A stretch of 64,000 nt of DNA from Henricia sp. BOLD:AAB3569 (Eukaryota; Echinodermata; Asteroidea; Spinulosida; Echinasteridae), in NCBI GenBank assembly GCA_037783545.1, contig JBBELK010001217.1, forward strand, positions 57,441 through 121,440. Direction: 5' to 3'. Below, piece after piece: positions 10,469-41,450 of the stretch. Every line of letters begins with the position of its first letter. Position 1 is the stretch's first letter. The position numbers were made by a program, and so were the translations under genes. The notes under the pieces are model-generated. The model ran no database searches. It was not told where the DNA came from and saw only the letters and a program-made list of their open reading frames with translations.

Positions 10469-13400
10469 GTATGTTGCTAGTAACATTTGGGTAATTCCCT
10501 AACTTAGGGGTCCAAAACATTTGGTGTCCCAGTTACGTACGACACTCTCTGCTTCAAAAATCACCACTCATGATCACAAATTCCCAGTAATGGACTGTGG
10601 CCTGTGATTATAGGGGTCAGCATAATTTTTCTCAATATTTTGTTCCCCGTTTCCTGAAAAATATTGAAAACAAAAGACCATAAAGGCTTATAATTTGTTC
10701 CATGGTTTTGAATAGGAGTTTGGTGTCCTGGGTGTCACGTACGCCAATAAAAATTGGCTGTAGAATCAGTTTGCATTAATCTTGGTGCCATACCTACACA
10801 CAAACATTAAATTTGAGTGGCATTTGTTGAAATAAAATAATATTTTTCTACTGGGAAACCACTTTCAATCACTAAAAACACTTTGAAATCTGAAAAAAAG
10901 CATGTCACACTTTTGGACCCCTAATTTATGGAATTAACATTTCAGATAAAGTTTTAACGATTTTTCCTTGTTTGTTTCAATTTTGCTATGTATTTTCTAC
11001 CACATGCATACTTTGTACATGTTTTTTTGGGACATACAGTATGTCGCAATAACTGACGGGTTCAGAAAAGTGTTAATAACATTGGATATGACACTACATC
11101 TCTTTGTAACAGCATAAGGTGAACACACAATGTTGAAGAAAACAAAAACTAAAGCTTCCATTGATTGTCCACTGACAATCTGTATTAAAAAGGATTCATA
11201 AAAACATGTAGTGTACCAGTTTACGCATTCCTATTGATGTTTTTCACCACATGCTTTTTGGCATCTTTTGTGCGTCTGTGTTCAAATCATGGGGATATCA
11301 CGCGCCTTACACGCATTTTTACATTCTAGCGCGCATTGTAGAAATACCAAAATTCACGCGCGTCTGCTGACTTGGAACACTTCCCGAAGATATACTAATA
11401 AACCTTTGGACGTCTCGTGACGTACCGGTAACGGGATAAACATCAATTGGCCAGGTAGTTGTGAACACTTTCTAATCTGGCCAGTGGCACCTCAGTCAGT
11501 TTCAGTGGAACACGCACACATGCAAAAAAAATGCATGTGTATCCTATGTATGCCCTAAAGCAAATTTGACACAGTGTAACAAATAACCCGGCCATGTGCA
11601 TGTGTACATACAGCATGCGTGCAATGCATGTTGTAGGTCTTGTACCCACCTCCCACCGCGGATGTCCCATTGTTCCTCTTAGTTTGGACTTAGTTTTTTT
11701 GGCGACTGCTCTAATTTGTTTTGTTCGTACAATGTACGTGTACATGATTCCAAATCGCAAACGTCTTTAGCGATCGCGGACCCTATTGTACATGTACCTA
11801 TTGTTAAACGTCCCCCATTTGAATACAGAAACCCGCACAACTTAATGCACAGAACATTACCAAAAAAAAAATGTCGAAACAGCGTAGGGTTTTGTTGAGT
11901 TTTACTGATCATGCTGATTTACACAAAATCAGATAATGGCCCGTTCCTCAATTTAATATTAATGTTTTCCTATTAATTTAGGAGTTTTAATTCTGGATGT
12001 TTGAAACATTGTACATGTACATGTACATATGTACATGTATGACTGTATATGTACTGTTCATGTCCACCATTTGTCTACCAATTGTCTCCCCCTATCGCTC
12101 CTCCCACCACTACTACCATCCCCACCCACCCCACTCTCCTTCTCTCTCCCTTCCTCTTTCAGAAATGAGCGAAGAGAGTACCACACTGCTCGGGAACGTT
12201 CAAGGCGTCACCCCATGGACCAAACCACAATAATTATTGATGGGATGGATCAGTCCAAGACTGATGTACCTCATCTAATCAGAAGGGACAAAGGTTCCGT
12301 TCATCTATCAAGACTTCCTGTGCACATAACAGGTTTGTATATTGACATCAAATGAAATCTGTAACGTGGTTACATCTATTTTTTGGGTGGTTTTAGCTTT
12401 TCCGCAAGTCATGCTAATTTAGTAAATGTTTGTTCACAGGTGTGTTGGTGCATACTGGAGTGGCAGCTGGAAAAATTCCCATAATTTTTATCGACCACAA
12501 GCAAGTCCCCCACGACAGCAATCTCACAATTCATTGCCTAGTGCAATCACTTTCACTTCACCAAGAAAAGCTAGGTAAAGCTTTATTCCTCCAGTTGGAC
12601 AACTGCTATCGGGAGAATAAAAACCGCTACATGATGGGTTTTGCAGCCTTGCTTGTCCAACTTGATGTCTTCGAGGAGGTATGTCTTGGGGAAGTTTTAG
12701 CAAAGTGGCCCGAAATTAGTACATGTGACTGATGGCCAATAAACATACCCATAACCTCAAAACTGTTGTTGTACATTTGGTTTGAGGAAACTTTTCAATT
12801 GAAACCAAGACAATTTTTGGCATGTCCATTTCTCGAAATGCTCATATTTAGTATCGTTTAATTTTCTTAATACCATTGGGTTAATGCCTTATATATTGAG
12901 TATTGCCATACCAAAAATAAAAGAGCAATTTCCTGTATTTTAAAAAATACATCACTAAGATTGTAAAAGTGTGCAAAAAAAAGAAAAACGAGTGACGCTG
13001 GAATGGCCCTTTTGCAAATTTACATTGAACAGTTTAGTACCGCATGTATGCCTGTACATGTACAGGCATACCGGTAAATGTGTAGTGTAGCAGCAAGTAC
13101 CGTTTAACATGTAGAGTATTGTACACTGTGTACAGTAGGCACACTGTATTACATGTACAATACATACAAAACATGAAATGTGGAAAAGACATGTTCTGTT
13201 ATCAACAGACCTAGTACAGTATGTACATGTAATTATTTAATTGTTTGTTTTTTATTTAATTTAACCTTTTTTTATTTGGTTTTTTTAGTCCTTTTTTTTC
13301 ATTTTGTTTTCCTTTTTTTTGGTTCAGGTTACCATGCATTTTCTCCCAGTTGGGCACACCCATGAAGATGTCGACCAACTGTTTTCTTGTATTTCAAGCA

Positions 13401-16400
13401 AAATAAGAAAGACAGATATACACACTTTGAATGGTAAGCAACCTTTGTGTCTGCACAAGCTATATTGCATTATGTTTAGTGCCTAATAAATGAGGCGAAA
13501 AGACCGTATTCCTGAACGCGTGATAAGGGCACTTGAATTTGGTGATTTAGGGAAATTCGCCCAGTCTGAAAGTGGGAAATGGAGTGAGTTCTATAATTGT
13601 ACGTCTGTGGGGAAAAGTCGCGTTCGCAGAGTGCGGGCCCGTGGCGTGGGCACAGACTTTCATTTAAAGGTAAACATTTGGAAGGCGTGCATGCACACCG
13701 CATTTTGTGTTCGAACATAACGCGCGATGGGCGCTGACCACTTGACAGCACTCTCACGCGTTCAGTCAGGAATACGGTCTATTGAATATCAAGGTAATAA
13801 TGATACACCAAACCTAAATGGTTGGGAGGGTTTTAATTGGTGAAATGCATTAAGTGTTTGGGCACTACAATGATGAAGCGGAATTTGCAAAATTTAAAGT
13901 CAGTCTTGTTAACTTCTTACTTGTATTTGGTGGGTTCTTGTTTGAATTAACAAGAATTTTAGTCATCAACCAAGTTTATCCTGGGATTTTACCGTATTTG
14001 CATAAACGTTATAAATGTACATGTACATCAAGTTTGGTCACTAGATGCATTGTTTTTACTGATACAGACATGGAAATTGCCCTTCGAGAAAGCTACTCGC
14101 CAGAGGTCAGTATACATTATGTCGTGCCACTGCTAAATGTGAAGCACTGGTTGGAGCCTCATCTGTTTGGTGATTTCCATAATCACAGCCACCCTCACTG
14201 GTTTCGTTTTACAAAAGTAGACGGAGTCTGTCGAATGCACTGGAGGATGTGGGTGTCCAGCCCATGGGAGCCACAGCTAAACACTGAAGACTCGGAAGAT
14301 ACAGATTATGACTATCATCATGGTTTTCGTTGTCTCAAAGTAAGTCAGCTTGTGTTTTGTTTTTTTCTTCCAATTTTTCTATAAGGGTCGTTCCAAGAAG
14401 TTGTGACACAAAAGTGTGACATTTCTTCATTTCCACAAAATGGCCAATAAGTAAACAGAGAGTTGTGTTCTCTATAATGATATTGAATGATATGGTTGCT
14501 TTGCCTGTTCTGTGATAATATTTTAGTTTTCGGCAACTCTGTACGGGTGCGACTAAAATTGTTCAGATGCGACCAGTGTTCTGCTCTTACTCACGGCCAC
14601 AGCTTTGGTCTGCATTGTATCCAATGCAGCTTTTGTATAATTTATACGTACATACATGCATAGGTATCCCACTATATTCAACAATGTATACTGTTTTGCA
14701 GTTTTGCACTGTACGTGTACACTCGAACAAATGGCTATTACACTTGTGTCATTGGTGAAAGGTTTTGCACATACGTTCACTTGCAGCTGCTATTTCTACA
14801 AAAAAATTGCTGAAAAGATAAAATGTTTCAGATTTTTCTTTACAATGCACACCAGGTTATTAGTGAAATACATGTACTCGATAAGGCGGTGGTTGTGGTA
14901 AGAGTTTAATGGGAAAAACAAGGAGTGGAAAAGTGGACAGATTCAGTGGCGGATCCTGAACAAACATGCCTGATTTACATGACCTCGCGCAAAAATGCAC
15001 ACACAAGTTGCGCGAAACAAGAGATGTTGCATATATGTAGCAACTGTGCTTGGTTCCCAGACGCCTTACAACTGTCTTGATCGTTGCGATTATAACCAGA
15101 CTATGAACATTTTAGGCTCATTCTACACGAAAAAATTGCATAAACCGACGCTATTTTTCGCTTCTAGCTCATTGGAGTGTATAGTTTACAAATCGAACAA
15201 CCAATAAATCAAAATACTGTAGGTGTTATTTTCAGTCCGAAAATGTAAATGGAAGTAGCCTACCAAAATGCCCTACGAAACTAACACTTTTGGGGAATCG
15301 GCCCACTGCCTGATTATTCAAATGCCTCTGTGGCTACCTTTTTTTTTGTATTAGTTATTTACTCAATTATATGTCAACCCACTGTTCAGAGTACACCTGC
15401 TTTGATTCCAACACCATCTTGGGTGGAGCCTTGTCTGGAGAAAATTGATGTTCCTGCGCTTAAAAAAGATATTCTACATAGTGAGGGATACAGGCTTCGC
15501 CTTCCAGATGACGCAAGAGAGTGGTGGGAGCAGTTTTTCCATCAGGTTATCGAATGGGAGAAGGTGAGTTTTCAAGGTGATCTCATGTAATCCATTTTGT
15601 ACAAATAACTATAAATGAGAGCCTCGTTAACAATTGAAAACAGATTTCTAGGTTGGATCTTAGGAGAAAAAGTAAAACAAATTAAATAAAACAAATAAAA
15701 CCTGAATTAATAAATACATGACTACATTGAAAAAAAAATGCATTTAAATGGCTTGTTAAAAAATCCAGTGTGGGAATTTCACGGAGGCCATGGAGGCCAT
15801 TGCTCAATGCTACTTCCTTTGCTGCCCCTGCCTCCGTTTCCCCCGGTCTTGGCCTAGTTGCCTTTTTGCCATCCTCTCATAGACTTTTTGATTTTCCAAC
15901 GGAAGTGCCCTTTAAAAACCAAAAAATGGCAGAACACCTTCAGTGACGAAATTCCTACAATGAAAATAGCATCAATATAAGGGGCGTTCGAGATGCTGAC
16001 ACCGGGTAACACCAACTTACACCGGAGCGTTCTTTTAGCCATCACGTGCTACACGAGTCTGCCCCGGTGGCAGCCACTACTACCCGAGCTCGCGGGCGGG
16101 TCTGTGGTGTAAAGCAAGGTGTAATGACGTCACCTAGTAACCGCGAGTACCGTATGACTTTTTAGAACCCCAAAACGTCGGTGCGTCTTATCTTTCGGTG
16201 CGCCTTGTCTGCTGACGATTGATTTTTTTGTTGATGATCACTGTGTGAAATAATAAATACCTTCTTGTCCAGTTCAAATCAACGGTCTTTGTGTGAAGAA
16301 TCCTTACTCAATAATGCGGTCAAACGTCAAACAAGGCTGAACTATTCAGACACTGAGACCGTATTTAGTTCGAACAATGCCGCAATCCCCCAGACCGTCC

Positions 16401-24667: not shown

Positions 24668-24815
24668 CAGATTATTAAGGCCATCGGAATGAAAGTCATA
24701 GAATACCGTCCTCCGCCCGCATAACCAAATGGCCGCCGCCAAAATTTTTCATTATTCCAAAATTTTTCATTTATATTTCAAAAAAATTGGAACTTCGACG
24801 TAGGTTACTTTCAAT

Positions 24816-25329: not shown

Positions 25330-25467
25330 CTTTCAGTACTTGTTCATGAAAGAAATAGATATACCGGTATATGGCGCCAAACCGAGAAATCAGACGATAG
25401 TCTTGAGCGCGAGATCCAAGTGCTGACACACAAATCCACTGTTCGTGTTTCGGTGTAGCCGCGCGAG

Positions 25468-26114: not shown

Positions 26115-26267
26115 CGCGCGAGACTGCAAATCCGACTGAAGTCCCGGGGCGCGTTCCTGAATCGATCATGGGCTGGCAAACCACGGGCTGCTACGCTCAC
26201 CGCCGTAAAAGACCGCGGCTGCGGCGACTGGCGTGTGGCTGTCCTTTTTTCATACATTGGGCTAGCC

Positions 26268-27170: not shown

Positions 27171-27198
27171 AACATTAGGCATTTTCATTATGCTTATT

Positions 27199-27435
27199 TT
27201 CACGCCGGCTATCTACGACATGATGTACTAGTTTAGTGGGACACAACGGACGAGTTGACTTCTACAGTTAAACGTACAACGGTCGAGTTGGTAGGAGTCG
27301 AGTTGGTACAACGGTCGAGTTGACTACTTCGGTCGAGTTGACTACTTCGGTCGAGTTGACTACTTCGGTCGAGTTGACTACTTCGGTCGAGTTGGTAGGA
27401 GTGAAGTTGGCAAACGGTCGACTTGACCTGCACCC
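27199..27435. mobile_element. CTCGACC-family element, copy c, 5'-truncated
   Basis: It begins inside the AT-rich core (CTATCTACGACATGATGTAC), continues through CGGACGAGTTGACTTCTACA, and has four GTTGACTACTTCGGTCGA units. It ends with the family right end (GGTCGACTTGACCTGCACCC). The left end is missing. Confidence 0.75.
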
Positions 27436-28086
27436 CTTTTTTTTCTATTGGGGCTTTCTGTACTGTGCCAGCTGCCCAGATTACGGGTTTCCGCAGGCTT
27501 TGCCTTGAGATGGATAGGGTACAGGTCAACTCGGTCCCAAGTCAACTCGGACCCTATGGGAAATTGAACGTAAAAAATGTTTATAATCAATGGCCAAAGA
27601 TTAATAATCACCAAAGTTGGGTTTAAACATTGTTTTCTGAAACAGATACCGTTATAGTTTACTGATATATCATCTCGGGCGGAAATACTCCACTTCTAAG
27701 GATTTTCAGGCAAAATGGTCAATTACATTTTTGGACATTGCAAATCTCCTTTTTTTTGTTTCGTTTACTTAAAGTACATTCTGGTTGTTTTCGCACCAAC
27801 TGTCCTGCAGAAAATTGCCCTGCAACTGCCCTGCATTTCTGTAATTCTATTTTTAAAAAGTAAAGCTTTTACCAGTTGAAATAGTATACATAAACAAATG
27901 CAAACAACACACGAAGTCGATCAGTACACGAGCGAAAAACTAATACTGAATTATATTTTTATATGAAAATGTACCTTTCATAATAAAGATTTCACATCAA
28001 AAATGTGAGTTTACTTTTTACCTTTTTGTAACTTCGGTTTTAGATCACATATATCGATGACGAGCAAGCACTGACTACCACTTCGG
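27436..28086. other. Upstream region of gene 2, no gene seen
   Basis: Apart from ACAGGTCAACTCGG words at 27520-27550, which resemble ends of the CTCGACC family, I see nothing coding. The AT-rich part from 27640 is the likely distal promoter region of gene 2. Confidence 0.4.
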
Positions 28087-28096
28087 CTATTTAAGG
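28087..28096 (+). promoter_or_regulatory. Possible TATA-like element of gene 2
   Basis: CTATTTAAGG lies 55 bp before the chosen ATG, so a start site about 30 bp downstream would leave a short 5' UTR. A short upstream frame beginning at the ATG at 28141 overlaps the start out of frame and ends after 12 codons. An alternative is that the TTTTCAG at 28105-28110 is an acceptor and the promoter lies further upstream. Confidence 0.3.
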
Positions 28097-28150
28097 AAAC
28101 CCGTTTTCAGAGTGCGGAAAGCGCCAGAACTCCTAGCTGTATGAACAAAA

Positions 28151-28360
28151 ATGCCTCGCCAAAAACTGTGGTGGTTTGACGAAAACGACACTGGATTTTT
28201 TGTTGTGTGTGCCAACACAAGATCGGGTACTGATGCCAAGCGACTGACCAGGACAAATGGCCAACCATACGGAAAGGTGAAGGAGTTGCAGGTGTACACT
28301 TGGCCTCCAGGATCTGATCAACCGAGTACCAGCACGCAGGAAAGTCCCAGAGATATCAAG
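28151..28360 (+). CDS. Gene 2 exon 1, start codon
   Basis: ATG followed by 70 codons, donor GTAAAA, phase 0. It encodes MPRQKLWWFDENDTGFFVV and a Ser/Thr/Pro-rich end (PSTSTQESPRD). The start was chosen as the first in-frame ATG. The earlier ATG at 28141 is out of frame. Confidence 0.8.
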
Positions 28361-31300
28361 GTAAAATGCCCGTCATGTTCTGAGAAGAATTGAGAACAGT
28401 GTCGGAAGGAAAAATTTTGCGATTTAAACAAAAGACTATTGGATTTATTATTTTTGGCGGAAAACATGTTATCGAGACAAGTTTTGAAAACATAAACCAA
28501 ACCTCCGAGTCCATGTTAAACAGGAAAACTCAAAATGTGGATGGGGGATACTAGATCATGATTTTCTGATGTTTACGTTGGTGTATAACATTGGGACTCT
28601 ATTTTCTGATGTTTACATTGGGACTCTATGAATCCATTTTAGCTACTAACGTTTTATTGTCCATGGCGAAATGTTGACCATGTTGCACAATTAAAATGGC
28701 CGCCATTCTCCAAATTGAAATTTCACCTTGCAGTCAAAATTAAACATTGAAAAACTTACCATGGAGGCCCTACCACTCTCAAGAATGTTGTACACTGGTC
28801 TGTTTGCCCCGATGATTCTTCTACACAGGAAAAAAACTAGTACACCGTAACTTCTTTACATTTTTTTGGCAAACTGGATCGAACAGCTTAATTTTACAGA
28901 TGAACGAACATGGTGAATCCCAGTCAAGATAGCCCGCCCTCTTGTGGTCACCTCATTGAATGACGCCATCGCAGTACATGAGATGACCACAAGAGGGTGG
29001 GCTATCTTGACCGTGATTCGCCTTGTTCATTCATCTGTAAAATCAAGCTGTTCGATCCAATTTGCTGGGAAAATGTAAAGAGAAATTACGTTGAACTAGT
29101 TCTTTTTCTGTTTCGAATAATTTGTATGAATTCATGTTCAGGTGATGTTCTATGAAGGCAACCCACGGGTTCTTGTGAAAAAACAGTTCCTCTGGCAAAA
29201 GAACTCGTTCTGCAGAAGTCTCAAGCCAAGCCCCCAGGCTGAATGTGCAGTCACACATATAGTGCAAGGGTTCAACAAAGCCATACTCAAACTGGATGCA
29301 AGCGGCACTACATGTAGCACAGATACTGACAACAACTTTTCAACTTACGTGGATGTAGACGAGTCCGAGGGCCCAACTCAACCTGAAGATGGCAGTACAG
29401 ACATTCAGACTCAAGGATGTGGGGTGCATGACAGGTATAGTACACTGTAAATGGGGACTATATGTACATGTCGCTAAGGCATGTAAGGCCAAGGGGAAAA
29501 AAGTAAGTAAAAAAAATATATACTCAGGGTTGGAAAACAAAATGTTGTACCGTACAGTTGCACGCATGTTGTACACAAATTTTTTACCAAATGTTCCCCC
29601 CTGATAAATAAAATGCAATTTTTATTTTGTCTTTATTTTTAAGCCAAAGCAAGTCGAAGAAACGAAAACATGGAGACATCGTTGTCCCTCCCTTATTGAA
29701 GAAAAGAGCAGATACAGCCAAGCCTACCAGATCCTCCGATTGTTCAGCTGCTTCGTACAAGGATGAAGCAACAAAGGCTTTTTTAGGTATGGTACATGCT
29801 AAAATTAATTTCTGATCAAATTGTACATGTAGGAACGTGACAACAGGGCTCGAAATACCCGCTGGACCGAGTCTAGTATTTTAAGCGCCGGTCTAGTGGT
29901 CTTTATGACCGACTAGACCGGCTGTCTAGTGATTTATTTCTTGGACAGTGAAACAAAAAGACATGTGGTTTTTTGTAAAATAAACAACTCACACTCAAGT
30001 CCCATGTCGCACCACCATTACTGTAAAATCATGCGGCATGTGCGCGTGAAATTGCACTCCGATCATTCCGTACCGTCCGCGTGGACTCGGAGCCCGGTGC
30101 ACCGGGCTCAACGCAACGCGGACGGTACATGTACGGGATGATCGACCGGCGTACCATGCGCGTGCATGCTGGTCATCTCCGCTTCGCCTAGCCTGGTTGG
30201 TTCCCAGTCCAAAGTACCAGTCACGTTAAGGTTTGATGCACTGTTTTGCAACGCCGGAATACAGTACGTCATATATGAATAATACATGTTTATTTTCATT
30301 GGCATAATAATACACGTGGTAGACGATATTATTATTCATAGTGTGACGTATCAGAGTCGGAATAACACACTGCTGGTCGTGCTTCAGACATGTCGGATGT
30401 CATGTTGTCGTTGGACACGGCATGGGAAATTTATAAAACCCGTCGGAGGTAGTCGGAGGTACCCAAAGGTCCCCGGAGGTAGATTTGTTTTGCTAACGTG
30501 TAGTTGGTGCATTGACGGTAGCTCAGGAGCTACGTTGTATTAAAATAACAAGCCGGAGGTAGGTTGTAGCATGTTCTACACGGTCATACAAAATTATACT
30601 TCCGGGTTACTCCGGGTTTCAACCAAACCCCACGGCATGCACGGGAATTTTGACTACCCGTTTTGCACGTAAGTTTGTACTAAAATGTGGCGATTTTTAG
30701 AAGTTGTATTTAAACCCAAAGAGCCTCCTAAGCAGTTTGAAAAACGTGGGAAATGGACATTCCAGGAAATTGTGCTTTGTCTTATTTTGAGTTTGGTCCA
30801 GTAAAAATATTTTCGGTCTTGTAAATAGTTTTTGGTACTAGACCGGTGGTCCAGTGGTTTTTTTACCGAAATTCAAGCCCTGGACAATCAGACGTCACGT
30901 GACCACATTCGTGTGACTATAACTTATGTTCAGTTTTGTGTCGGTCGCCTGAGGTGTATTTTTTTCCAAATATCCGTGATGTTTTAATTTTGTCTAAAAA
31001 TTAGTTAACGGTAGTTGTACATTGTACACTATGAAACTATAGAATACAGGTCAACTCGTACGCGGGCCAACTTGTGCGCCGACCAACTTGTGCGCCGACC
31101 AACTTGTACGCCGACCAACTTGTACGCCGTTCCGGCAAGTGCATGTACAATGATGTAGCTAATCTCCGTTGTGCAAATATAAAAATCCTTATCGTGGCCC
31201 CAAACATGTTTGTAGAACGGTTTGTTATACCCCGGTCACACAGCTCTGCGACCTTACGAAGACCATGCCGATCATCCCGATCTGAAAAAAGTTATCAAAT

Positions 31301-34300
31301 CGGGGCATTATCGCCACAAACTGGCTACGCTTATTTTGTTGGCATGGTACGAGTTGACCTGTTTCCAAACTATTTATAGCCTGATACCCAAAATCTTGGA
31401 ATCGTCGATGCTGCTCAAGAGGAAAAAATGGAGTTAAAATGAGACCACAACAGACTTAAATTCCCATCTTCATAAGCAATAGTGGCAATTCTAAGGAATA
31501 GAAAATAAAATTGAGATTTATTCATGCAATGTGTGAAAATTGGAAGAAATGTTCTCGTTGCGACAACGGTTGCTTGGATGCGGAAAATCGGTTACAAACT
31601 GATTCACCACGTGCAAGCTAAATGAAACACGTAGTCTGTGACCAATAATGGTATAGTCTATTTCTAGGGAAAGTCCTGTTTCATGTAGTCTGTAAGCGAC
31701 TGTCGACCAATAAGACCATTAAACAAAAAATCACCTTACTTGTCATGGGCTTCGCAGCATGCAGGTGTCAACAAAAGAAATATTAATCGTCTGGGCTGTC
31801 CAGTGAAATCGTGAGCAGAAAATTTGAGATATCCTGAGTAGGAGAAGAGCGAATCGTTTGTGACAAAGTCGTGAGGCTCGCGCGTAGTTGCAACGGCTGG
31901 TAAAGCGTATAACCCGTCTTTTGACTGTTTTTGTTAATTTTGCACTTACGGGATATGTGGATTTTTTTCTTCACAACGACCATCCAAAAAGTATTGTCAA
32001 TGCTGCTACCTCACTAAATCATGTAAACAGTAGGCCGGTGTGTACCTTTAAATTTAAATGAAATAACACTTAAATTTAGTAAGGAAAATCAGTGTTGCCA
32101 TCACTCTGTAACAAAACAAATGTTTGCAAAGGAGTAATCCTGCAAAGGAGTGTTATCCTGCAAAGTGTAATTTCTGGAATCGGCAAGCTATCACTGAAAA
32201 TCGAATGTAAATGAAAGGGAATTGATTTATACTAGGAATCGATTCCTCAAAAAATTTAGAATCGCGATTCCAATTCCTGAAGTGGAATCGATTCTACTCG
32301 ACTCTGGAGTCGCCCAAGCCTATTATCAAGTATATAAACTGTCTGAATGATGAATTTGTATAATTTTTATATTTTTTCTTATGCAGGACATGTGAAAATA
32401 TCTATTCACAACTTAGAATTGGGACAACAGATTCGTCCTGTGCGGATGGAGTTTGTGTCAAATCTCCAGAAGCAGATGGAAAAATTTTCCAACTCCACCT
32501 ACCAGCCATTGTGTGTGGTGACAAAAACGCTTCAAAGCAAAGCCAATTTTTCAGAAGCAAATGTGAGTACAGTATATGCTCTTATAAAAAAACGACTCCT
32601 CGTGGCAATCTAGTCTTAGACTAGTACAAGAAACGACTAATCATCACCGGGGAAGGGCTTGATGTTGACACAGAACCTTGGTCCAGAACCCTGTGAAAAT
32701 CTCACTCACACTTAGGCAAAGCTGACAAAGCACGGACACACCATTAGCACAATACAATTTAATAAAAACCAGTGCTTACCCATTTCACTTTATAGGTTCG
32801 TACATGTGTGGCAATAGCCTAATGCCACATTATTGGTCTCTGTATTTCTTGGCTAATGAAACTCGTGTTATGTTTCCCGTAACCCGACCGCGTTTGGATT
32901 TTTCGGCCGCGTTTGAGATGCCAAAATCCTAAAACAATTAATTATTTTGTAATTTCTCCTAAAATATCAAATTTTCAAATATTTTCTCCTGCCCTTTTTG
33001 TTGGATTTTTAAAAGCAGCGCTCGAAATTTAACATTTTGGGTGAGGTGCTCATTCTCGTCTTCCTGCCAAAACAAATTTAACGTAATTTTCTTCCCCCAT
33101 AAAAGAAAAATTTCCCCAAAAACAGAGTGTCGGCGCGGCTGGCCGGCGGTACGTGAACGTTTATAACAGTGATTTACAAAAAATTCATTGAGGACATTAA
33201 GCTGCCGTTTTTTTTATGCATGTACCCGGTGTGCAAAACCCTACACGCGCAAGAGGGGATAATTTATTTTTAGTTATTACTGTCCAGTAGATGAGATGCA
33301 TTAATGGTACCAAAATGGAGAACAGAAATTAAATTGCACAATATTTAAATTTACTAACCGTGGAATTTCCCATATGACTGTGCAATGTGGTCTCTATTCA
33401 AAAGGAAGAATGTTTTCCCCAAACTCGGAAAGGCTAGGCAAAAATTTAAAAAAGGTGTGGGAGATTCCCAAGACCGTAAGAGGGCGCAGTATTTCAGGCA
33501 TGTCCAACACGGGAAAAAATCCAGTAACGATCTTGCGTCAAGACTATGAAGCAGCAAGCATGCACACGCAACACGGGGAATAAAAACTATAGTTAAAACA
33601 AATGAATAGTTTAATATGAAAGGATTACAACAATTATTCTTTCAAGGAAATGGCCTACTACCGTTAGGAATTTTGCTTCAATTTATTTTGACTTGTTTTG
33701 GGGAAACAGTGTAAATATACATAATGCAGGATCGTTCTAAACAAACGAGCTCTTAATTAAAGGTTACAATTCTAAGCAATGAAAAGATGCCTGGCATGTT
33801 GTATAATGTAAGCGTTTCTGCTTAGATGTTATTTTGTCTTTACCTTTTAGGCAAATGGATACAAGTATCTCGTAGTTGGTGGCCAGCACAACTATCTAGC
33901 TGCAAAGGCTGTGAGTCTAGTCCACACAGTAAATGAACTGTTCAAGTCTAGATGGTGCAGTGTCTTCTATGGTCCCGACTTGTCATCGGAAGCAAGGCTG
34001 TTTCTTGCAAATAGCCACAATGCCATTGGTGGTTACCGACACAAAATGACATTCAAGGATAAGGTAAGTAATTTGTACTGTCATAGCCATAAAGAGGGCC
34101 TACAGAGGTCTATGTACATGTAAATGTACACAAAACAGTATACAAATATTGACTGCAATGAGGGGCATGGTTAAGATTATAGGCCCAAGGTGATCTCGAA
34201 GCCATGACTATGCCCCGAGGCGGAAGCCGAGGGGCATAGTCATGGCTTCGAGATCACCGAGGGCCTATAATCTTAACCATGACCCGAATAAACAGCAGTC

Positions 34301-37300
34301 AATATTTGTTTTATATACCGAATGTGTAGATTTTTGTCATCTGGTTGGTTAAAAGTAACGAGACATCATATATACAGTCATGACAGTGGTCCTTCGCGTT
34401 TCGATTTCGGAAGCTGGTCTATACGGGGGAAAAGTTGTATATTTACAGCAAACATTGTAGCATAATCACCTGGCACTTTAGTAGCACATTTCACCTGACA
34501 CAGTTTTCAGTGTAGGCCACTTCTCTTACTTTCTTAAGGACTTCATCATCTACGACAGACGACAAAATGACGTCGAGATTCCGCCATTACCGTCCTGATG
34601 AATGTTTACGTGAAGCGCACAGCTGCATAGTTGGTGCACAGCTATAGCTATGCTAACACATGTAATGCGCGCGTCCGGAACCCGCTAAATGACTATGCCC
34701 GGGGCATGGCAAAGACTATTGACCGGTGGGCATATACGCGCCGGGTCTAGCCGATTCAATGCCCCCGCTTTTAACCAATCAGATGACAGGAATCTACGCA
34801 TGAGGTATATAATGTGTACTATCTTGCTCGATGGACACTCACAAGGGAACAATTTCAAAAAGATTTCCGATGTGTTGACTGTATCAATCCCATTGCATTA
34901 GACATTGTTATAAAATTGACCCCAGGTGGTCTAAACAATAGTAATAACAGTCTGGAAATAATTAAAAAAATTATTGTACAATTTTTTTTGTAGAGTTGTC
35001 TGCTTGAAAGGGCACGGTCCAAAATATTTTGGTATGGCAACTTGGGTGAGAAAGATACATATTGCATAAATACCAAACATTAATTATTCATTCTGTGAAT
35101 TATACCCCAGAAACAAAAGACATTGTGCCGAATAAATGTACATTATACAAGAACAAGAAATATGACGAACTGCAAAACAGATACAAACTTCACAGGAACG
35201 GCAATTGCTACAATGTCTACAAGTAGTAGTACGGGCACTTAATTTTGTGGCAGACGTAGACAATGTATGGATGGCCAACTGCATACGTGTATGGTTCGTG
35301 TTTTTTCATGCATGCAGTGAAAACATCGGACCCTAAACAGTTTTGAAGCGACACTTTGTCCCCAGCTAAAATCGTAGGTGTACCGTAATTTACATTTTCT
35401 CTTGTTTATATCGCGTAGCATAGAATCTAACGAGTGGCAATCAGTTTTTTTGGGGAGCAAGAGTTCGTCTTATCTTCCAAAAACGGCAAAAACCACGACC
35501 ATCGTTGGTCAAAATGTACGCTGCGATGACCCATTGCCTCATCGTAGCTTACGGTGCGTTGCCATGGCAGATATGCATTGTTAAACCCATCGCAAGTTTC
35601 TTGAAATTGTTCTTTAGACGAAACACGAGTTACGGAACAGTAACCCATCGCATCTCGAGTTACGAAGAATCATAAACGCTAGTGAAATCGACCCCGTGGG
35701 CAAACTATGCCATAACCAAAAACGATATTTCTCACAGTTTTCGGACAAAATGGTGGCGTCCATACTACAAGGCACTGCAGAAATTTACGTTATGTGAATT
35801 TCATATACATTAATCAATTAGTCAAATTTGCAAAAAATAATGTAATTGCATTTGTAAAAAAAAGAAGGCTTTAAAAAGAAAGTTTTAATTGTTGTTAAAA
35901 AGCGTAAAACACTAAATCATATTTCAGAAGGATTAACTGAGCCCGGTTTTTTAATATGGTAAATATTAAACAATCATGCTCACAGAGGTACAACTCTATA
36001 TTGAAAGTGCACAGAACTAAAACCGTATTCCATATACCATTATCAGGTTAAGATGTGCAACTCGATTAAGGATGATGCAGTTGGAAAGGCTGACGGTACC
36101 TGGAAGAAGACATGTTGCAGCATCTTGGAAGAGGTACGCAAGCAGGATTTATATCATATCAGTTTACATTTATTTAAATCGGGTTGATTAACTTGGTATT
36201 TTCTGGAAAATATGGTATGTGTTGCCAAAATACCCCCTTGACTGTAGAAACAATCAAATGTATCTCTACAATTGTTTTTGTCCAGGACCTTTCTAGCCAT
36301 TCTGCAAGGAACATGTTGTTTCTTGCAGACCAGGACGATGATATCTTCGCCCTTGTTATGCAAGTGCTTGAGATGTACGAGCGAGGAGAAGTAAAGGGAC
36401 AGCACCTGAGGAAGAAGGAGTCGGAGACAGGTGTCCTGGAAATACGCCCCTATGTATTTCGACCGTTCCAAACACTACCTAGCAGTGCTCTGGAGCGGCT
36501 TCTCCAGGATATTGTCGCCGGGCACATCACAGTACCAGAGTTTAAGACAGAGGGTGACACCCTTAACCGACTACAGAGAATTCAGCAAGCAGTTGTAGCA
36601 CTTATGGATGCAAAGAACTGGAATGAGCTTCAGGAGAAGTTTCCAACCCACTGCACACGCCAAGTTCTGTTTCAATTCATCTGCAAGGGCAAGGTAGTGG
36701 GAATCACTCCGGAGCTCAAACAGTTTTGCAGAATGCTAAGGAAATCTGAAAGCAGAACCTTTGAGGAAAGGAGTTTCCTGAGAAAAGCCCCCTACCAAGG
36801 TGCAGCCAACTCGGTTGGATTTACTATTAATATAGAACCACGAGAGCTGACAATGGAGGCGGTACGGGGTCTTTGTCCAACTTTCAATGGATTTCACCTC
36901 ACCATATTGGACTTGCCGGAGGTAATTGATTTTGTTTCTTAATCTTTATATAAAGTATTAACTTACAAGATTTCCAATGCTGTAGATTAAAGACGGAGGC
37001 TCGTCAATACGCGACAGAAACATTAGTGACACGAATTTCACCGCGCTCCATACCTTAACCTGGCAGCCGCTCTTACGATCCCAAAGGGCGTTGGTGCAGG
37101 CTAATTTATTCTACAAATAGGGTGTTTATCTTTTCAAAATCAAATATTTTTCACAGTAAACTCACCTTGCGAGACTGATTAGCCTAGCAATGCATAAACA
37201 CACTGTAGCCAGCTTGCATAAATAATGAGCCTCCACCCTGCCCTACTCAAGCAAGATATGGAGCGTGGTAAAATTCATGGCACAAACTTGTTCCTGGTGT

Positions 37301-40300
37301 AATGACGAGCCTGCGTCTTTAAGTTCTGTATTATAAAGACGTTGTGTTCATATACACTAACCATCAAAACTTTGGAAACGCCTTGAAAGTTTTAGGTTTT
37401 TGAGAAGGAAGTATTATTTTGTTTATTCATAATAAACCAAGCTATTAAAGCAAATGGAGGTGGAAGGTGTATCTGGAGAGAAAGTAGACATCTGGAGTGC
37501 TGTCCATCATGGAATGGCCTGCCCAGTCACCTGATCTCAATCCCATTGAGCTGCTCTGGGAGGGGCTGGATTGTAAGGTCAGAAAGAAATGCCCAACCAG
37601 CCAAGAAAACCTCTGGAGAGATTGTGTGTAGCTGCTAAGGGGATTCTTTGGTGGACATCAAGTTTAGCCGTTTCTTTTTGCATGCTCTCCAATTTGTTGA
37701 TAAAGCCCACTGTTGAGGCCGAAGATGGCACTAAAATTAACATGAATATATTTCCTTTTGTTGTATTACATCTATATTTGCTTTCAAAAAGTTGACATTT
37801 ACAAAATTAACATTCTCAAAATTGTTTTCTTCTCAAGAACCTGAAACTTTCAAAGTGTTTCCAAAGTTTTGATGGGTAGTGTAACAAACAAAACAAATGT
37901 ACAATAAATTACATTTTTTTTTAAAACATTTGTTTATGTTATGATTTTTACCCACATATCAACAAAGATTGGGTTCACAACCCCCCTTAATTTTCGTAAA
38001 TTTCACACATGTAAGAAAACAGAAATTGCTTATTGTTTATGGAACTACCCGGTACTTATTATTTATCCAAAACAGGAATGGAAGGAGTCCCATATCAATG
38101 AGTTCCTTGCAGTTGTGACCGCTTTGAACTTGTCGGCAGATTTACGAGGTTTTACTATCATCGTTATTTCAACCATCTCTGCCCAGGCAATGGTGCGACA
38201 GTGCCTCACTGAAACTCAACAGTTTGAACACATCAGTAACTGTTTTTTTCACCGCACCAATATGAAACCAAGTAAGTAAACTGTACGTTTAAAACGTACG
38301 TTTAAAACCGGCTAGGGGACTGACTTGGCCGCAATCCCATTCATAAATACCTTTTTTTGTGTTATTCAGCGAAACTCACCACAATTCTAAGACTAGAGCT
38401 TATGTGCTTCACGAAGCACGAATATCAGCCTGAAATAGCCTTTATAGCTGCAGTACAGAAATGCTCAATACGGCGTTTCCTCGTTACTGTACAGTCTACG
38501 GCTTCTTAGTAAAATGACCCGTACTGACCATTAGGTAGCCGATGGCCAAATTCTGTGAACAACCCATATGTAGCTTGGTCCAAAGATGTTACTGACCACA
38601 TTTGACATTAATTGGGTCAAGACTGTGGAAGAAGCATTTTATATTTTTAAAGAAAATGACCAGCAGTGACTAGTAGTTGACCATTGACCTCACGTGGTGG
38701 TCACCCCAATTAGGACTCCGGTCAAGGAAGACTCTGTCCAAATCTGGTTGAAATCGGCCACGGCGTTTGGCAGTTATTAGCAGATGTGTGATGTCACGTG
38801 ACCGTTTGCCCGAAGAAAGAAAGAAAGAAATAATTTAGAAAGAAAGAAAGAAAGAAAGAAAGAAATCGGACGATCACAATATATCAGCGTGCTGCGCACG
38901 GCTGATATAATAATCTTTCGTTTTTCCGACATGCATGCATGACATTGCGTTCATTTAAACTGCTGTGTTGAGTTTTTTTCGATGTGCGCATCACTTGTTA
39001 CAGAGAACCTTTTTTTTCTCGGGAGCATGCAGTTTCTGTGTGCGTGTGTGCGTGTGTGCATGTTTCATACGTGCTGAATAGGGTGCGGGCCAGGTGAAAA
39101 GCCGGTCTTTATCGTCTTTTTAAAACTGGCCATGTGTTGTGCTATCGGCCAATGAGGATGTGTAAACTGTCCTACCGGTAGGTATTTATTTATGAATTTC
39201 CATTCATTAATACCTTGGACAATTTAGGCATCCCTATTGACTGAGAGCATATACATAATTTTGAAATTGATAGTTTCTGTGCTTCTCAAATGTTCATATT
39301 ATTATTTTTTTCTGGTATTCATACCAAGGATTCCTCAATAGTGCCCATTGCACTGTCACTCGCAAGCGTGAGGAAACCCATGAACAATTAGAATTAGAAA
39401 TGGCCAGAGACACCGGGGAATCCCCTTGCTCTTCACAAAAGAATGCTCTGGGATCTTTAAAGTGTGTTACTATTACCTAACACACTAGACCAACGGCTTT
39501 ACATCCCTTCCGAAGGATGGGGCATGTGTGGTTGAGTGCCTTGCCCAAAGGCACAGGTACCGCAGCCGGATTCGAACACACAACACCAAGTTTTCACCCA
39601 TGATTGCGAGTCAATGACCCAAACCACTCGCCCACGGTACCCCACAGCTTAATTTGGAGTAGTGGCAAACTCATTACATATGCATCTGGTCTACTTTATA
39701 ATAATCTGGGCTTAAAAATATAACTTATAAAATCCTTAATGATTAATAACATTGTTTAACTCCGTAGACGATGACTTGCTGGCAAACGCAGTTGACAGCC
39801 TAATTGTGGCACACCACACCAAGCCTAAAGCACTAAAGTGGGCTGTAGCTGGGACGAGAACAAACCTTGTGCAGTGCAGGGAAGATGCCCTCTACACAGA
39901 CGATGACGGGATTCCTGTGGACCTGAAGCAGAAACCTGTAGCACTCTACAAGGAAGTCATCCTCACCTTCTCTTCCCAGCAACAGTGGGTGCTGGATGCA
40001 TGCTGTCGGACAGGTATGCTTCAATAGAGTGCATTATACAATTATTGCCTGCTGTGAAGGGGTCCATGGTGTTCACTTAATAACAACGCCGTACATCGCT
40101 CATGTACTTCTGACCAATGTACGTAAACATGCATGCTTATGGCATGTCAATTGATTGATTCCCATCCAATAAAAATCCACAATCTATCAATAAAAAACAC
40201 CAAAAGAGATTAGCTTCATCACTGCTTTGTTACTGTATGTTTGTCTGTTTTCACATTGGCCGATTACACTAGCTTAGTGGAATAAAATCACATTCACAGG

Positions 40301-41450
40301 GGTGTTCCTCGATAATAATACTTGTATACACATTGACTTGTGTGACCCCAAATACTTCAACACTGTATGAGGGGGTGTTTCTATTAGGAGCACTATCATT
40401 TCACAGTTCTGCTGATGTGAGGCGTAACTCTTTTAAAGCCTTACATCATTTGCAGTAACGCAAATTTTACTTCACGGGTTGAAAATAACAACTTGAATAA
40501 ATGTTTTGATAGGAGTGGAAACAAAACACAAGATTTTGGTTAAATTGTCTGAAGCCAATTATGTTACCAAGCATCTAACAAAAAACTATGCACGGATTTT
40601 TCAGGTATTCTGAAGTATTACTACATTTATGCGGCTTAAATTTCTTTACTTAGAATGTTTCTTTACTTATGATGTTCCTGTTAAATTTTTCAAATCATGT
40701 AATCGGTCTTAATCGGTATTTTGTCTGTTTCTAGGGTGCACTATTGAAAAGTGTTATCAGCTGCTACTGGCAAAATTATCATGTATCCAGCTTACAGAAC
40801 ATTGCTTTTCAAAATGCATGTGTTCTAATCCTTACCCACAGTCAAAAAGTTTATTTAACTAATGCATTCTAACAACTTGCCAGTAATCTTGCACCATCAA
40901 AATTCCTATTTCGAAAAAAATAAATGGGTGAGGTGCGACCTGCGTGTATAAAATGACGTGTGCATATGAAAAGCTGACACTTTCCTTACTACCATTATTT
41001 TATTGCTAAGGCCCATTTGTTTGTTTTTTCCCCTGTGTGATAGGAACTGGACTTATTGCCAGTTTGGAGGAGGGCAGGAATGGTTTTGCGGTCGAAAAGG
41101 ACAGAGGACTGCTTTTCCATCTGCAGGGGCGATTCAACAAAGCACCTTGGAAAAGATCCAAAAAAAAAGGCAGTCGGGACAGTGGGAAATCTACATGCAC
41201 ACCAACCGGAGACAGTGACACGGAGGAGGATGGAAACATGGAGGCGGAGGATGGAAACATGGAGGCGGAGGATGGAAACATGGAGGCGGAGGATGGAAAC
41301 ATGGAGGCGGAGGATGGAAACATGGAGGCGGAGGATGGAAACATGGAGGCGGAGGATGGAAACATGGAGGTGGAGGAAGATGTATGGGATTTTTCAGATT
41401 CCCTGGAGGAAGAACTTGCCACAATGCCAGGACTGAATGACTGTAACTAA
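28151..41450 (+). CDS. ParB-like / DNA methyltransferase-like fusion protein, ten exons
   Basis: Ten exons with GT-AG introns and compatible phases give 868 codons with start and stop. In order: unknown N-terminal region (1-168); basic nuclear-localisation stretch KSKKRKHG (about 170-178); ParB/sulfiredoxin-like domain (about 216-345) with IRPVR and VVGGQHNYLAAK; a helical middle (346-560); a beta-class methyltransferase-like domain (about 565-760); a 7-residue acidic repeat (797-846); an acidic C terminus. In the methyltransferase part the order IV, X, I is as in the bacterial beta class: DLPE at 583-586, QKPVALYKEVI, then VLDACCRTGTG and GRNGFAVEKD. Motif I (SAM binding) is good. Motif IV has lost the usual P-P-Y/W, so activity is doubtful. 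ParB plus methyltransferase is a phage and plasmid arrangement, so ancient transfer is a reasonable inference. Confidence 0.85.
28867..29068. mobile_element. Palindromic MITE in gene 2 intron 1
   Basis: Arms at 28867-28953 and 28980-29068 are inverted copies with a spacer of about 26 bp. Shared landmarks are GATCGAACAGCTT, TTTTACAGATGAA and the core CAAGATAGCCC/CCCTCTTGTGGTCA. It ends close to the exon 2 acceptor (29141) but does not disrupt it. Confidence 0.85.
29142..29434 (+). CDS. Gene 2 exon 2
   Basis: The acceptor is TTCATGTTCAG and the donor GTATAG, leaving in phase 2. It encodes VMFYEGNPRVLVKKQFLWQK, then a Cys-containing stretch and an acidic, Asp/Ser/Thr-rich end. No domain recognised. 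Confidence 0.82.
29644..29786 (+). CDS. Gene 2 exon 3, nuclear localisation stretch
   Basis: The acceptor is TTATTTTTAAG and the donor GTATGG. It encodes QSKSKKRKHGDIVVPPLLKK. The two basic clusters (KSKKRKHG and LKKRAD) look like a bipartite nuclear localisation signal, which fits a DNA-acting protein. It leaves in phase 1. Confidence 0.8.
29844..30882. mobile_element. hAT-like non-autonomous element with 5-bp duplication, gene 2 intron 3
   Basis: It begins CAGGGCTCGAAAT and ends with the inverse ATTCAAGCCCTG. Inside both ends lie GGTCTAGT-type words. GACAA directly flanks both sides (29839-29843 and 30883-30887). CAGGG-type ends are typical of hAT elements, and a 5-bp duplication suits the hAT5 group. 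No transposase. The interior holds smaller inverted repeats, for example around 30085-30130 and 30255-30355. Confidence 0.7.
31046..31363. mobile_element. Small element with ACAGGTCAACTCG ends and 16-bp subterminal repeats
   Basis: The left end ACAGGTCAACTCGTACG and the right end GTACGAGTTGACCTGT are inverted copies. Four CCAACTTGTRCGCCGA units follow the left end. The design resembles the CTCGACC family at 24.8-27.4 kb with a different repeat word. Located in gene 2 intron 3. Confidence 0.65.
31364..32386 (+). other. Rest of gene 2 intron 3
   Basis: No exon or clear element. AT-rich sequence with GAATCGATTC-type words around 32230-32300. It ends in a T-rich acceptor tract. Confidence 0.5.
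32387..32562 (+). CDS. Gene 2 exon 4, start of ParB-like domain
   Basis: The acceptor is TTCTTATGCAG and the donor GTGAGT. Phase-1 entry, phase-0 exit. It encodes GHVKISIHNLELGQQIRPVR, then EFVSNLQKQMEKF and PLCVVTK. The IRPVR stretch and the following helix match the N-terminal part of ParB/Srx-like domains. Confidence 0.83.
32563..33850 (+). other. Gene 2 intron 4
   Basis: No gene inside. AT-rich sequence. The short open frames on either strand at 33350-33580 lack splice context and similarity. Confidence 0.55.
33851..34063 (+). CDS. Gene 2 exon 5, ParB/sulfiredoxin-like core
   Basis: The acceptor is TTTACCTTTTAG and the donor GTAAGT. 71 codons, phase 0. YKYLVVGGQHNYLAAKAVSL corresponds to the conserved G-x-H/R-x-x-A box of ParB (GxxRxxA) and sulfiredoxin (GGCHR). 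Here the Cys of sulfiredoxin is Gln and the usual Arg is Asn. LANSHNAIGGYRHKMTFKDK follows. Confidence 0.85.
34142..34308. mobile_element. Near-perfect hairpin MITE in gene 2 intron 5
   Basis: Arms at 34142-34216 and 34231-34308 are nearly perfect inverted copies, with a spacer of about 14 bp around CGAGGCGGAAGCCG. Landmarks are CAAATATTGACTGC, TTAAGATTATAGG and GATCTCGAAGCCATGACTAT. Arm identity implies recent origin or repair by gene conversion. RNA across it would form a hairpin of about 75 bp. Confidence 0.9.
34309..36046 (+). other. Rest of gene 2 intron 5
   Basis: No coding exon is needed: exons 5 and 6 are both phase 0. I see no RNA gene. Parts have CG-containing sequence (34530-34780 and 35440-35660) that may be old repeats. 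Confidence 0.5.
36047..36133 (+). CDS. Gene 2 exon 6
   Basis: The acceptor is CCATTATCAG and the donor GTACGC. 29 codons, phase 0. It encodes VKMCNSIKDDAVGKADGTWK and a Cys pair. Too short for the usual ORF length limits, but required by phase and flanked by good sites. Confidence 0.78.
36286..36921 (+). CDS. Gene 2 exon 7, helical middle and degenerate methyltransferase motif IV
   Basis: The acceptor is TTTTTGTCCAG and the donor GTAATT. 212 codons, phase 0. The first two thirds look helical and charged (LLQDIVAGHITVPEFK and RLQRIQQAVVALMDAKN). The end GFHLTILDLPE occupies the place of beta-class motif IV, where DPPY or DPPW is normal. Open sequence continuing upstream of 36286 is intron read-through, not exon. 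Confidence 0.87.
36922..38075 (+). other. Gene 2 intron 7 with Tc1 relic
   Basis: It contains the Tc1-type element at 37355-37881. The remainder is non-coding. Confidence 0.65.
37355..37881 (+). mobile_element. Internally deleted Tc1/mariner element
   Basis: Inverted ends beginning CACTAACCATCAAAACTTTG (right end inverse at about 37862-37881) sit between TA dinucleotides at 37353-37354 and 37882-37883. Near 37505-37625 the sequence still encodes a Tc1 transposase tail: EWPAQSPDLNPIELLWEGLD, with the last catalytic acid in the IELLWE box. A TAG stop follows, and the N-terminal two thirds are deleted. Confidence 0.9.
38076..38271 (+). CDS. Gene 2 exon 8, methyltransferase-like domain
   Basis: The acceptor is TATCCAAAACAG and the donor GTAAGT. 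Phase 0 in, phase 1 out. It encodes EWKESHINEFLAVVTALNLS and DLRGFTIIVISTISAQAM. The helix plus hydrophobic strand fits the region after motif IV in beta-class methyltransferases. Confidence 0.82.
38811..38867 (+). repeat. GAAA microsatellite
   Basis: (GAAA)n tract with one interruption at about 38830-38840, in gene 2 intron 8. Confidence 0.9.
39400..39646 (-). repeat. tRNA-derived SINE-like repeat
   Basis: On the minus strand an A-box-like TGGGCGAGTGG (39624-39634) and a B-box-like TGTTCGAATCC (39568-39578) are spaced as in a Ser/Leu-type tRNA. TTGACTCGCAATC stands in the anticodon-arm position. The arms do not give a full tRNA cloverleaf, and unrelated sequence follows, so this is a SINE head, not a tRNA gene. 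Located in gene 2 intron 8. Confidence 0.6.
39768..40013 (+). CDS. Gene 2 exon 9, methyltransferase motifs X and I
   Basis: The acceptor is ACTCCGTAG and the donor GTATGC. The phase-1 join gives KPN-DDLLAN. Near the end are QKPVALYKEVILTFSS (motif X-like) and QQQWVLDACCRTG (first half of motif I). The intron splits motif I between exons 9 and 10. Confidence 0.87.
40014..41043 (+). other. Gene 2 intron 9
   Basis: AT-rich intron without recognised elements or exons. It ends with a pyrimidine-rich acceptor tract (TTTGTTTGTTTTTTCCCC). Confidence 0.6.
41044..41450 (+). CDS. Gene 2 exon 10, terminal
   Basis: The acceptor is CCCCTGTGTGATAG and the exon ends with TAA. It completes motif I (GTGLIASLEEGRNGFAVEKD), where GFAVEKD matches the motif II acid. 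A basic stretch (WKRSKKKGS) is followed by seven copies of an acidic heptad and the tail DVWDFSDSLEEELATMPG. Confidence 0.88.
41229..41375 (+). repeat. In-frame 21-bp minisatellite in gene 2
   Basis: Seven head-to-tail copies of a 21-bp unit (GATGGAAACATGGAGGCGGA plus G) encode DGNMEAE repeats, the last ending in VEE. Copies are almost identical, so copy number probably varies between alleles. The length is a multiple of three and the frame stays open. Confidence 0.95.

What the first reader, a model, noticed from the sequence alone, without database searches (positions are those of the whole stretch)
28151..41450. Animal-type spliced gene encoding a ParB-like plus DNA methyltransferase-like fusion
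Ten exons with consistent phases give an 868-residue protein. It has a nuclear localisation stretch, a ParB/sulfiredoxin-like domain (VVGGQHNYLAAK) and a beta-class methyltransferase fold (QKPVALYKEVI, VLDACCRTGTG, GFAVEKD). ParB-methyltransferase fusions are known from phages and plasmids. A spliced copy in a presumed animal genome suggests an ancient captured DNA-modification system. Other bacterial-type methyltransferases have been captured in animals (N4C methyltransferase of bdelloid rotifers), so this is plausible.
Basis: partly seen in the sequence, partly recalled or inferred. Interest (0 to 1): 0.75.

Follow-up and report, generated by a model that had tools for sequence, protein, structure and literature searches.

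The report
Animal ParB–methylase-like gene family
An animal genome carries an intact, ten-exon gene for a protein that joins a ParB-like part to a bacterial-type DNA-methylase part with a changed catalytic motif; it belongs to a family often found near one conserved unknown gene, with cousins inside large repeated DNA elements, and the pairing is otherwise known from phages and algal transposons.

Summary
Ten GT-AG exons at 28151-41450 join in frame to 868 residues without an internal stop. The host is an animal: 740.7 Mb, Wnt genes. Paralogs at 45-47% identity keep the same introns and phases; against a closer copy dN/dS is 0.13.

The C-terminal half is a beta-class (N6_N4) methyltransferase fold. 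In six of six paralogs compared, the aromatic residue of catalytic motif IV is gone (D[LMFIP]P[EKQ] instead of D[LP]PY); in the window gene motif I is damaged too. The ParB-like half is collinear with phage ParB but weakly supported.

'Captured modification system' is only partly supported. Family loci are linked to a DUF7869 gene, one copy of which lies 14 kb upstream (19 of 48 ParB loci within 50 kb; 7 of 18 after collapsing copies by hand; 0.6% expected). ParB-domain cousins lie in repeats of at least 10 kb dispersed over many contigs. Closest precedent: ParB-methylase accessory genes of algal giant transposons (PMC12477816). I file it as a new variant of that kind: animal, spliced, probably not a working methylase.

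The parts
28151..28360 (+). exon 1 (aa 1-70), N-terminal domain MPRQKLWWFDE...
29142..29434 (+). exon 2 (aa 71-168)
   Evidence: counterpart in C1128
29644..29786 (+). exon 3 (aa 168-216), basic stretch KSKKRKHGD..LLKKR, possible nuclear localisation signal (by inspection)
32387..32562 (+). exon 4 (aa 216-274), first half of the ParB-like domain (QIRPV..., YQPLCVV)
33851..34063 (+). exon 5 (aa 275-345), ParB-like core VVGGQHNYLAA and SHN
36047..36133 (+). exon 6 (aa 346-374), end of the ParB-like region
36286..36921 (+). exon 7 (aa 375-586), linker conserved in the family, ending in motif IV ILDLPE
38076..38271 (+). exon 8 (aa 587-652), methyltransferase core after motif IV
39768..40013 (+). 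exon 9 (aa 652-734), QKPVALYKEVI and motif I VLDACCRTG
41044..41450 (+). exon 10 (aa 734-868), end of motif I, GRNGFAVEKD, then a 21-bp in-frame minisatellite (EDGNMEA, 7.3 copies) and the stop
12427..12687 (+). neighbouring gene, DUF7869 exon (model positions 11-95; LQLDNCYRENKNRY)
   Evidence: (E 9.1e-28)
13319..13432 (+). neighbouring gene, DUF7869 exon (model 90-127; VGHTHEDVDQLFS)
14043..14258 (+). neighbouring gene, DUF7869 exon (model 120-191)
   Evidence: (E 4.1e-8)

Best explanation
The gene is an intact, selected member of an animal gene family that descends from an accessory protein of large mobile DNA elements carrying a DUF7869 gene. The protein probably enters the nucleus, uses its ParB-like domain to load on or recognise DNA, and uses a beta-class methyltransferase fold as a DNA- (and in some paralogs SAM-) binding module that no longer transfers methyl groups efficiently, because motif IV has lost its aromatic residue. 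Its likely job is to mark, shield or regulate element DNA, or host DNA after domestication. Shown: gene model, family, conserved introns, purifying selection, methyltransferase homology, motif IV change, linkage to DUF7869, dispersed ParB-domain cousins. Inferred: the ParB fold, DNA binding, nuclear entry, loss of catalysis, element origin of the window copy itself.
For: Gene intact and spliced; same architecture in C1128 and C162; dN/dS 0.132. Methyltransferase: N6_N4_Mtase in 5 of 6 family members, best 4.3e-9; CcrM and other solved enzymes at about 1e-5; hhalign Prob 98.3, E 1.9e-14 to 25 phage enzymes, with DLPE placed on DPPY when the alignment is forced. Motif IV: DLPE (window), DMPK (C1128, C162), DFPE (C869), DIPQ (C317), DPPK (C513). 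Linkage: 19 of 48 ParB loci within 50 kb of one of 46 DUF7869 loci, 0.6% expected per locus; 7 of 18 after collapsing copies, binomial 1e-11; 10 of the 17 loci that I listed as group 2 share the same divergent order. Dispersal of cousins: seven copies identical in protein on seven contigs; the 10 kb held of one copy is matched throughout on C153 in two pieces (99-100%), and other pieces of 1.2-7 kb at 92-100% lie on many contigs in both orientations, two copies being broken by about 4 kb. Precedent: ParB-methyltransferase accessory gene in the 21.5-kb Sola1-1_Ec32 transposon (PMC12477816, passage).
Against: In the dispersed cousins the ParB domain and an exon-7-like exon were found, but no methyltransferase exon, in the DNA held (10 kb of one copy, 3.6 kb of another). 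No terminal inverted repeats were recognised for the window copy; only pairs of 40 nt or more were sought and the 25 longest of 122 shown. 29 of 48 ParB loci, among them C806, C162 and its duplicates, C365 and C514, have no DUF7869 within 50 kb. The linkage statistic assumes random placement; mobile elements cluster in repeat-rich DNA, and the loci were reduced by hand. ParB sequence support is weak (hhalign Prob 4.4). Orientation to DUF7869 is tandem at the window, divergent at most linked loci. Loss of catalysis is inferred from sequence only.
Confidence: 0.5

Rival explanations
1. A working DNA N6-adenine or N4-cytosine methyltransferase, guided by the ParB-like domain, that methylates its own element or host DNA, as proposed for the algal transposon proteins.
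For: Fold intact; SAM motif SGTG conserved in paralogs C1128, C162, C869; D and P of motif IV invariant in all six; strong purifying selection; the Ectocarpus authors suggest self-modification (PMC12477816).
Against: The residue after P in motif IV is E, K or Q in six of six paralogs; 25 of 25 phage reference enzymes kept in the comparison have D[PLI]PY or SPPY (19, the other six; 26 were listed and the script kept 25). The window gene also has G to R in motif I.
Confidence: 0.2
2. A domesticated host gene family (for example a chromatin or genome-defence factor) whose closeness to DUF7869 genes is only residual; it now works for the host.
For: Conserved introns across 45-47% identity, open frames, dN/dS 0.132; lower copy number of the full-length genes than of the dispersed cousins; many family loci without DUF7869 nearby.
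Against: Persisting linkage in 7 of 18 collapsed lineages; some paralogs carry stops or lack exons, e.g. C376, C6, C112; an allele-like contig C282 lacks 14.4 kb including exons 1-5 and most of exon 6, so the gene may not be indispensable.
Confidence: 0.22
3. A direct, more recent capture of a phage or plasmid ParB-methyltransferase by the animal.
For: Among 25 references the best-scoring are phage beta-class enzymes, most with motif IV ILCDLPY and motif I VLDNCMGSGT, close in spelling to ILDLPE and VLDACSGTGT; ParB fusions with N6N4 methyltransferases are frequent in phages (PMC12704722, section 7 read).
Against: In the phage rows listed, matches cover only residues 421-551 of a 553-residue query, best E 2e-3 (477 records at E up to 1, 75 rows seen); no relative in viral or prokaryote collections; shared introns and deep paralogy speak for great age. 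The reference set was chosen partly by similarity to a family member, so it is biased. Plasmid collections were not searched.
Confidence: 0.06
4. Gene-model artefact: joined unrelated open frames.
For: No transcript evidence available here.
Against: Same exons, phases and domains in independent paralogs; low dN/dS.
Confidence: 0.02

Closest known systems
ParB-like plus DNA methyltransferase accessory proteins of algal giant transposons (Sola1-1_Ec32 of Ectocarpus, 1104 aa; [quoted passage not shown]
   Same: Same two domains in one eukaryotic protein; association with large DNA elements
   Different: Here an animal; ten exons; low-copy, selected genes; motif IV aromatic lost; neighbour is DUF7869, not shown to be a Sola transposase. 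No algal sequence was available here to compare
Phage ParB-CTPase / N6_N4 methyltransferase fusions (PMC12704722)
   Same: The domain pair, as described there
   Different: Phage genes have no such introns; the phage methyltransferases fetched here keep D[PLI]PY or SPPY; no phage ParB fusion protein was fetched, so order and homology of the fusion were not compared
N4CMT of bdelloid rotifers (PMC8885841, passages)
   Same: Bacterial-type PF01555 enzyme in an animal genome
   Different: N4CMT is fused to a chromodomain, keeps the catalytic SPPY and was shown to make 4mC; ParB is not mentioned in that main text
CcrM and other beta-class adenine methyltransferases
   Same: QKP..L and motif I region, CcrM aligned over 90 columns
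   Different: Motif IV; added ParB-like domain and 210-residue linker

Membership tests
Beta-class DNA N6/N4 methyltransferase (PF01555) | Profile match over the curated cut-off | tested here: not met
   Window protein 22.5 bits whole, 26.3 bits domain alone, cut-off 26.7; still significant, and 5 of 6 members match, best 4.3e-9
Beta-class DNA N6/N4 methyltransferase (PF01555) | Fold and circular order (motif IV before motif I) | tested here: met
   hhalign E 1.9e-14 to 25 phage enzymes over the motif I half; order IV then I in a forced full alignment
Beta-class DNA N6/N4 methyltransferase (PF01555) | Catalytic motif IV [DNS]xP[YFW] | tested here: not met
   DLPE, DMPK, DMPK, DFPE, DIPQ, DPPK in six of six
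Beta-class DNA N6/N4 methyltransferase (PF01555) | SAM-binding motif I FxGxG-like | tested here: inconclusive
   SGTG in C1128, C162, C869; SNTG in C317; RTG in the window gene; not seen for C513
Beta-class DNA N6/N4 methyltransferase (PF01555) | Methyl transfer to DNA | not testable with these tools
   needs assay
ParB/Srx (ParB-CTPase fold) | Profile match to ParBc | tested here: not met
   No ParBc match in 6 of 6 members; no ParB chain in a PDB profile search
ParB/Srx (ParB-CTPase fold) | Collinear box I, box II (GxxR) and box III (ENxQR) | tested here: inconclusive
   101 columns collinear with 67 phage ParB domains (of 80 loci fetched); score 21.2, reached by 0 of 100 column shuffles (best 19.3), reversed 13.2; Prob only 4.4; GGQHN in place of GERRW
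ParB/Srx (ParB-CTPase fold) | NTP binding, DNA clamp | not testable with these tools
   needs assay; no structure could be predicted
ParB-methyltransferase accessory proteins of eukaryotic giant transposons | Both domains in one protein | tested here: met
   (ParB half with the reservation above)
ParB-methyltransferase accessory proteins of eukaryotic giant transposons | Gene lies inside a defined mobile element | tested here: inconclusive
   Window copy: linked DUF7869, no ends found; ParB-domain cousins in dispersed repeats of at least 10 kb, ends not reached
ParB-methyltransferase accessory proteins of eukaryotic giant transposons | Common descent with the algal proteins | not testable with these tools
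   no eukaryotic sequence collection on hand

The most novel reading that the evidence does not exclude
Animals carry a previously undescribed kind of giant DNA element (DUF7869 as putative transposase, ParB-methyltransferase-like protein as accessory), and the latter became a catalytically dead methylase-fold DNA clamp, conserved as an independent gene family: a nucleotide-gated, methylase-derived reader of element DNA in an animal nucleus.
Probability: 0.25. Interest if true: 0.85.

Novelty: new variant of a known kind. Interest (0 to 1): 0.62.

Why it matters
It extends a domain pair known from phages and algal transposons to an animal, shows it as an intron-rich gene family under selection, and ties it to a conserved gene of unknown function (DUF7869) that may mark a class of large animal mobile elements. 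It also gives a caution: a profile hit to a bacterial DNA methylase in an animal need not mean 6mA or 4mC, because here the catalytic motif is changed in all six paralogs compared. Both the element idea and the loss of activity are directly testable.

Tried and rejected
Rejected: gene-model artefact (paralogs with the same exons); bacterial contamination (spliced, on a 121-kb contig of an animal assembly beside a DUF7869 gene, no prokaryote match); the C842 copy as proof of movement: it runs from the gene's 3' part straight to a DUF7869 exon, but its downstream tandem arrays match the window too, so it may be another allele or a local duplicate. The 273-bp satellite downstream was not connected to the gene.

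Led nowhere: viral contigs with the window protein, with A1 and with A3, genome contigs with A3: no relative; PF01555 over the own genome in six frames: no match, probably because single exons are too short; PDB with A1: nothing; PDB with one DUF7869 exon: nothing; phage loci searched for a ParB open frame by pattern: one chance match; phage P1 region fetched for ParB, the gene lay outside the stretch; terminal repeats of the window unit. Structure prediction of exon 7 was asked six times and the machine was full each time. Paper searches; DUF7869 is in no held paper. In the titles and abstract starts that (20 of 62 papers; 16 of 16; 20 of 78; 5 of 5; 1 of 1; 15 of 135; 8 of 37) showed, I saw no report of a ParB-methyltransferase in an animal; that is no proof that none exists.

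Corrections to my own work: off-by-one joins. The 46 DUF7869 loci are my hand-made reduction of 100 matches, the 48 ParB loci my list, and the 18 lineages my hand-made reduction of those.
Full report
What is there. Ten exons on the + strand between 28151 and 41450 join in frame to 868 residues; all introns are GT-AG and there is no internal stop. The genome has 740.7 Mb in 2104 contigs and Wnt genes, so the host is an animal; which one is not known to me.

It is a family. With the window protein, 58 exon matches were scored in the own genome, with the paralog C1128 protein 73; the tool calls such counts lower bounds. Near copies lie on C806 (same exons 3-10, other intron lengths), C282 and C842. 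Divergent genes on C1128 and C162 keep the exon layout and phases: C1128 exons 2-10 (709 residues to the end of the DNA held, no stop), C162 exons 3-10. Over the two domains the window gene shares 257 of 549 residues with C1128 and 245 of 549 with C162. More distant members are C869, C317 (begins at the contig end) and C513 (exons 9-10 not found in the 9 kb held). Some loci carry stops or fragments (C376, C6, C112 and others). Against C806, 668 codons give dS 0.284, dN 0.038, ratio 0.132; the C806 exon 10 aligns over 334 of 407 bases with a 10-base gap, so its end may be broken.

Methyltransferase half. Pfam N6_N4_Mtase E 1.3e-4 for the window protein, below the curated cut-off; PHROGs methyltransferase 8.9e-7; 5 of 6 family members match N6_N4_Mtase, best 4.3e-9 (the C513 member in that alignment lacks the matching part). 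A family profile finds solved enzymes, among them CcrM at 8.3e-6 over 90 columns. Against 25 phage enzymes fetched here hhalign gives Prob 98.3, E 1.9e-14 for this one comparison; the confident part is the motif I half, and a forced full alignment sets ILDLPE-W on the DPPYG...W of motif IV. The six best-scoring references have ILCDLPY (five) or IIADIPY (one) as motif IV, and five of them VLDNCMGSGT as motif I, spellings close to ILDLPE and VLDACSGTGT; all 25 keep D[PLI]PY or SPPY. Nine of the 25 loci came from a search with a family member and 16 from a search with one phage enzyme, so the set is biased. In the animal family the residue after P is E, K or Q in six of six. In the window gene motif I reads DACCRTG where C1128, C162 and C869 read DACSGTG.

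ParB half. No library profile matches it. An alignment of six family members is collinear over 101 columns with 67 phage ParB domains (QIR / QP / Y.V.GG.H..A / LA..HN against PRK / QP / Y.IV.GERRWRA / ENlqR); score 21.2, reached by 0 of 100 column shuffles (best 19.3), reversed control 13.2, but Prob only 4.4 and E 0.009 for this one comparison. I take the ParB/Srx fold as likely, not proven.

Neighbourhood. Some 14 kb upstream in the same orientation lies a gene with a nearly complete DUF7869 domain (model 11-191 of 192) in three exons, 12427-14258. Its LQLDNC..EN and VGHTHEDVDQLFS motifs remind me of RNase-H-type transposases; that is recall, no call supports it, and a PDB search with one exon found nothing. 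The genome gave 100 DUF7869 matches, which I reduced by hand to 46 loci. Of 48 ParB loci that I listed, 19 lie within 50 kb of one; 0.6% would be expected per locus. After collapsing copies to 18 lineages, 7 are linked (window with C282, C1128, C376, C513, C6, C869, group 2), binomial 1e-11. Clustering of mobile elements makes these figures too strong, but the fixed divergent order in ten group-2 copies is hard to get otherwise; of the dispersed group 1, only 1 of 11 entries is within 50 kb.

Dispersed cousins. A ParB-domain open frame on C163 (profile E 8.5e-56, though this sequence was in the profile) has seven copies identical in protein on seven contigs (C163 included), one more at 99% and three partial ones at 98%; a second group at 48-53% identity has twelve longer matches. 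The 10 kb held of the C163 copy is matched in full on C153 in two pieces at 99-100%; further pieces of 1.2-5.5 kb at 92-100% lie on C736, C206, C129, C1081, C10 and others, with shorter, less similar ones, in both orientations; C153 and C736 are split by about 4 kb (only 31 of 21230 candidates were scored). An exon-7-like exon follows the ParB exon in the C163 copy (tblastn 1e-8) and, by eye, in the group-2 copy on C232, as in the window gene. A methyltransferase exon was not found in the 10 kb and 3.6 kb held. So the dispersed elements carry at least the ParB part of this family; whether they carry the methyltransferase part is open.

Allele. Contig C282 is 99.9% identical over the pieces on either side but joins window 21702 to 36123, inside exon 6: 14.4 kb with exons 1-5 and most of exon 6 are absent there.

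Literature. [quoted passage not shown] its reference 51 is the Bostrychia genome paper, seen as a citation only, and the entry before it (pmid 21507349), not held, is from memory the 2011 review by Iyer and colleagues. PMC12704722 (passages and section 7) describes phage ParB-N6N4 fusions. PMC8885841 (passages) describes the rotifer N4CMT with an active SPPY. PMC12695648 (passages) has no occurrence of ParB in its main text. The listings showed no title or abstract start on an animal ParB-methyltransferase; they are partial, and most subscription papers are not in that library.

Judgement. 'Captured DNA-modification system' goes beyond the evidence: catalysis is doubtful and the family is tied to DUF7869 genes and dispersed elements. 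I rate it a new variant of a known kind, interest 0.62.

Noticed in passing
window 47225-64000: 273-bp satellite, about 61 copies at 98%, running to the window end; it yields long open frames on the - strand that are probably spurious.
   Followed up: no
window 43500-46540: Arrays of a 34-bp unit with higher-order 102- and 306-bp periods, shared with C282 and C842.
   Followed up: partly
window 41225-41377: 21-bp in-frame minisatellite in exon 10 (EDGNMEA); the C282 copy shows a 21-base gap in exon 10, so the acidic tail varies in length.
   Followed up: partly
window 21703-36122: 14.4-kb stretch with exons 1-5 and most of exon 6 absent from the otherwise 99.9% identical pieces of contig C282: perhaps a presence/absence polymorphism.
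   Followed up: partly
window 12427-14258: DUF7869 gene, about 46 loci in the genome by my reduction, linked to ParB loci; no held paper names DUF7869.
   Followed up: partly
window 19074-21612: Inverted arms of about 300-400 bp (four pairs at 92-95%) enclosing about 1.8 kb, perhaps a nested element.
   Followed up: no
window 42045-42608: About 560-bp dispersed repeat, 89-92% identical, at 37 places outside C1217, C282 and C842 among the scored matches.
   Followed up: no
L070 (C163:298001-308000): Part of a dispersed repeat of at least 10 kb that carries a ParB-domain gene.
   Followed up: partly
C899:1661066-1669110: Two copies of the C162-type gene as an inverted pair: palindrome or assembly artefact.
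   Followed up: no
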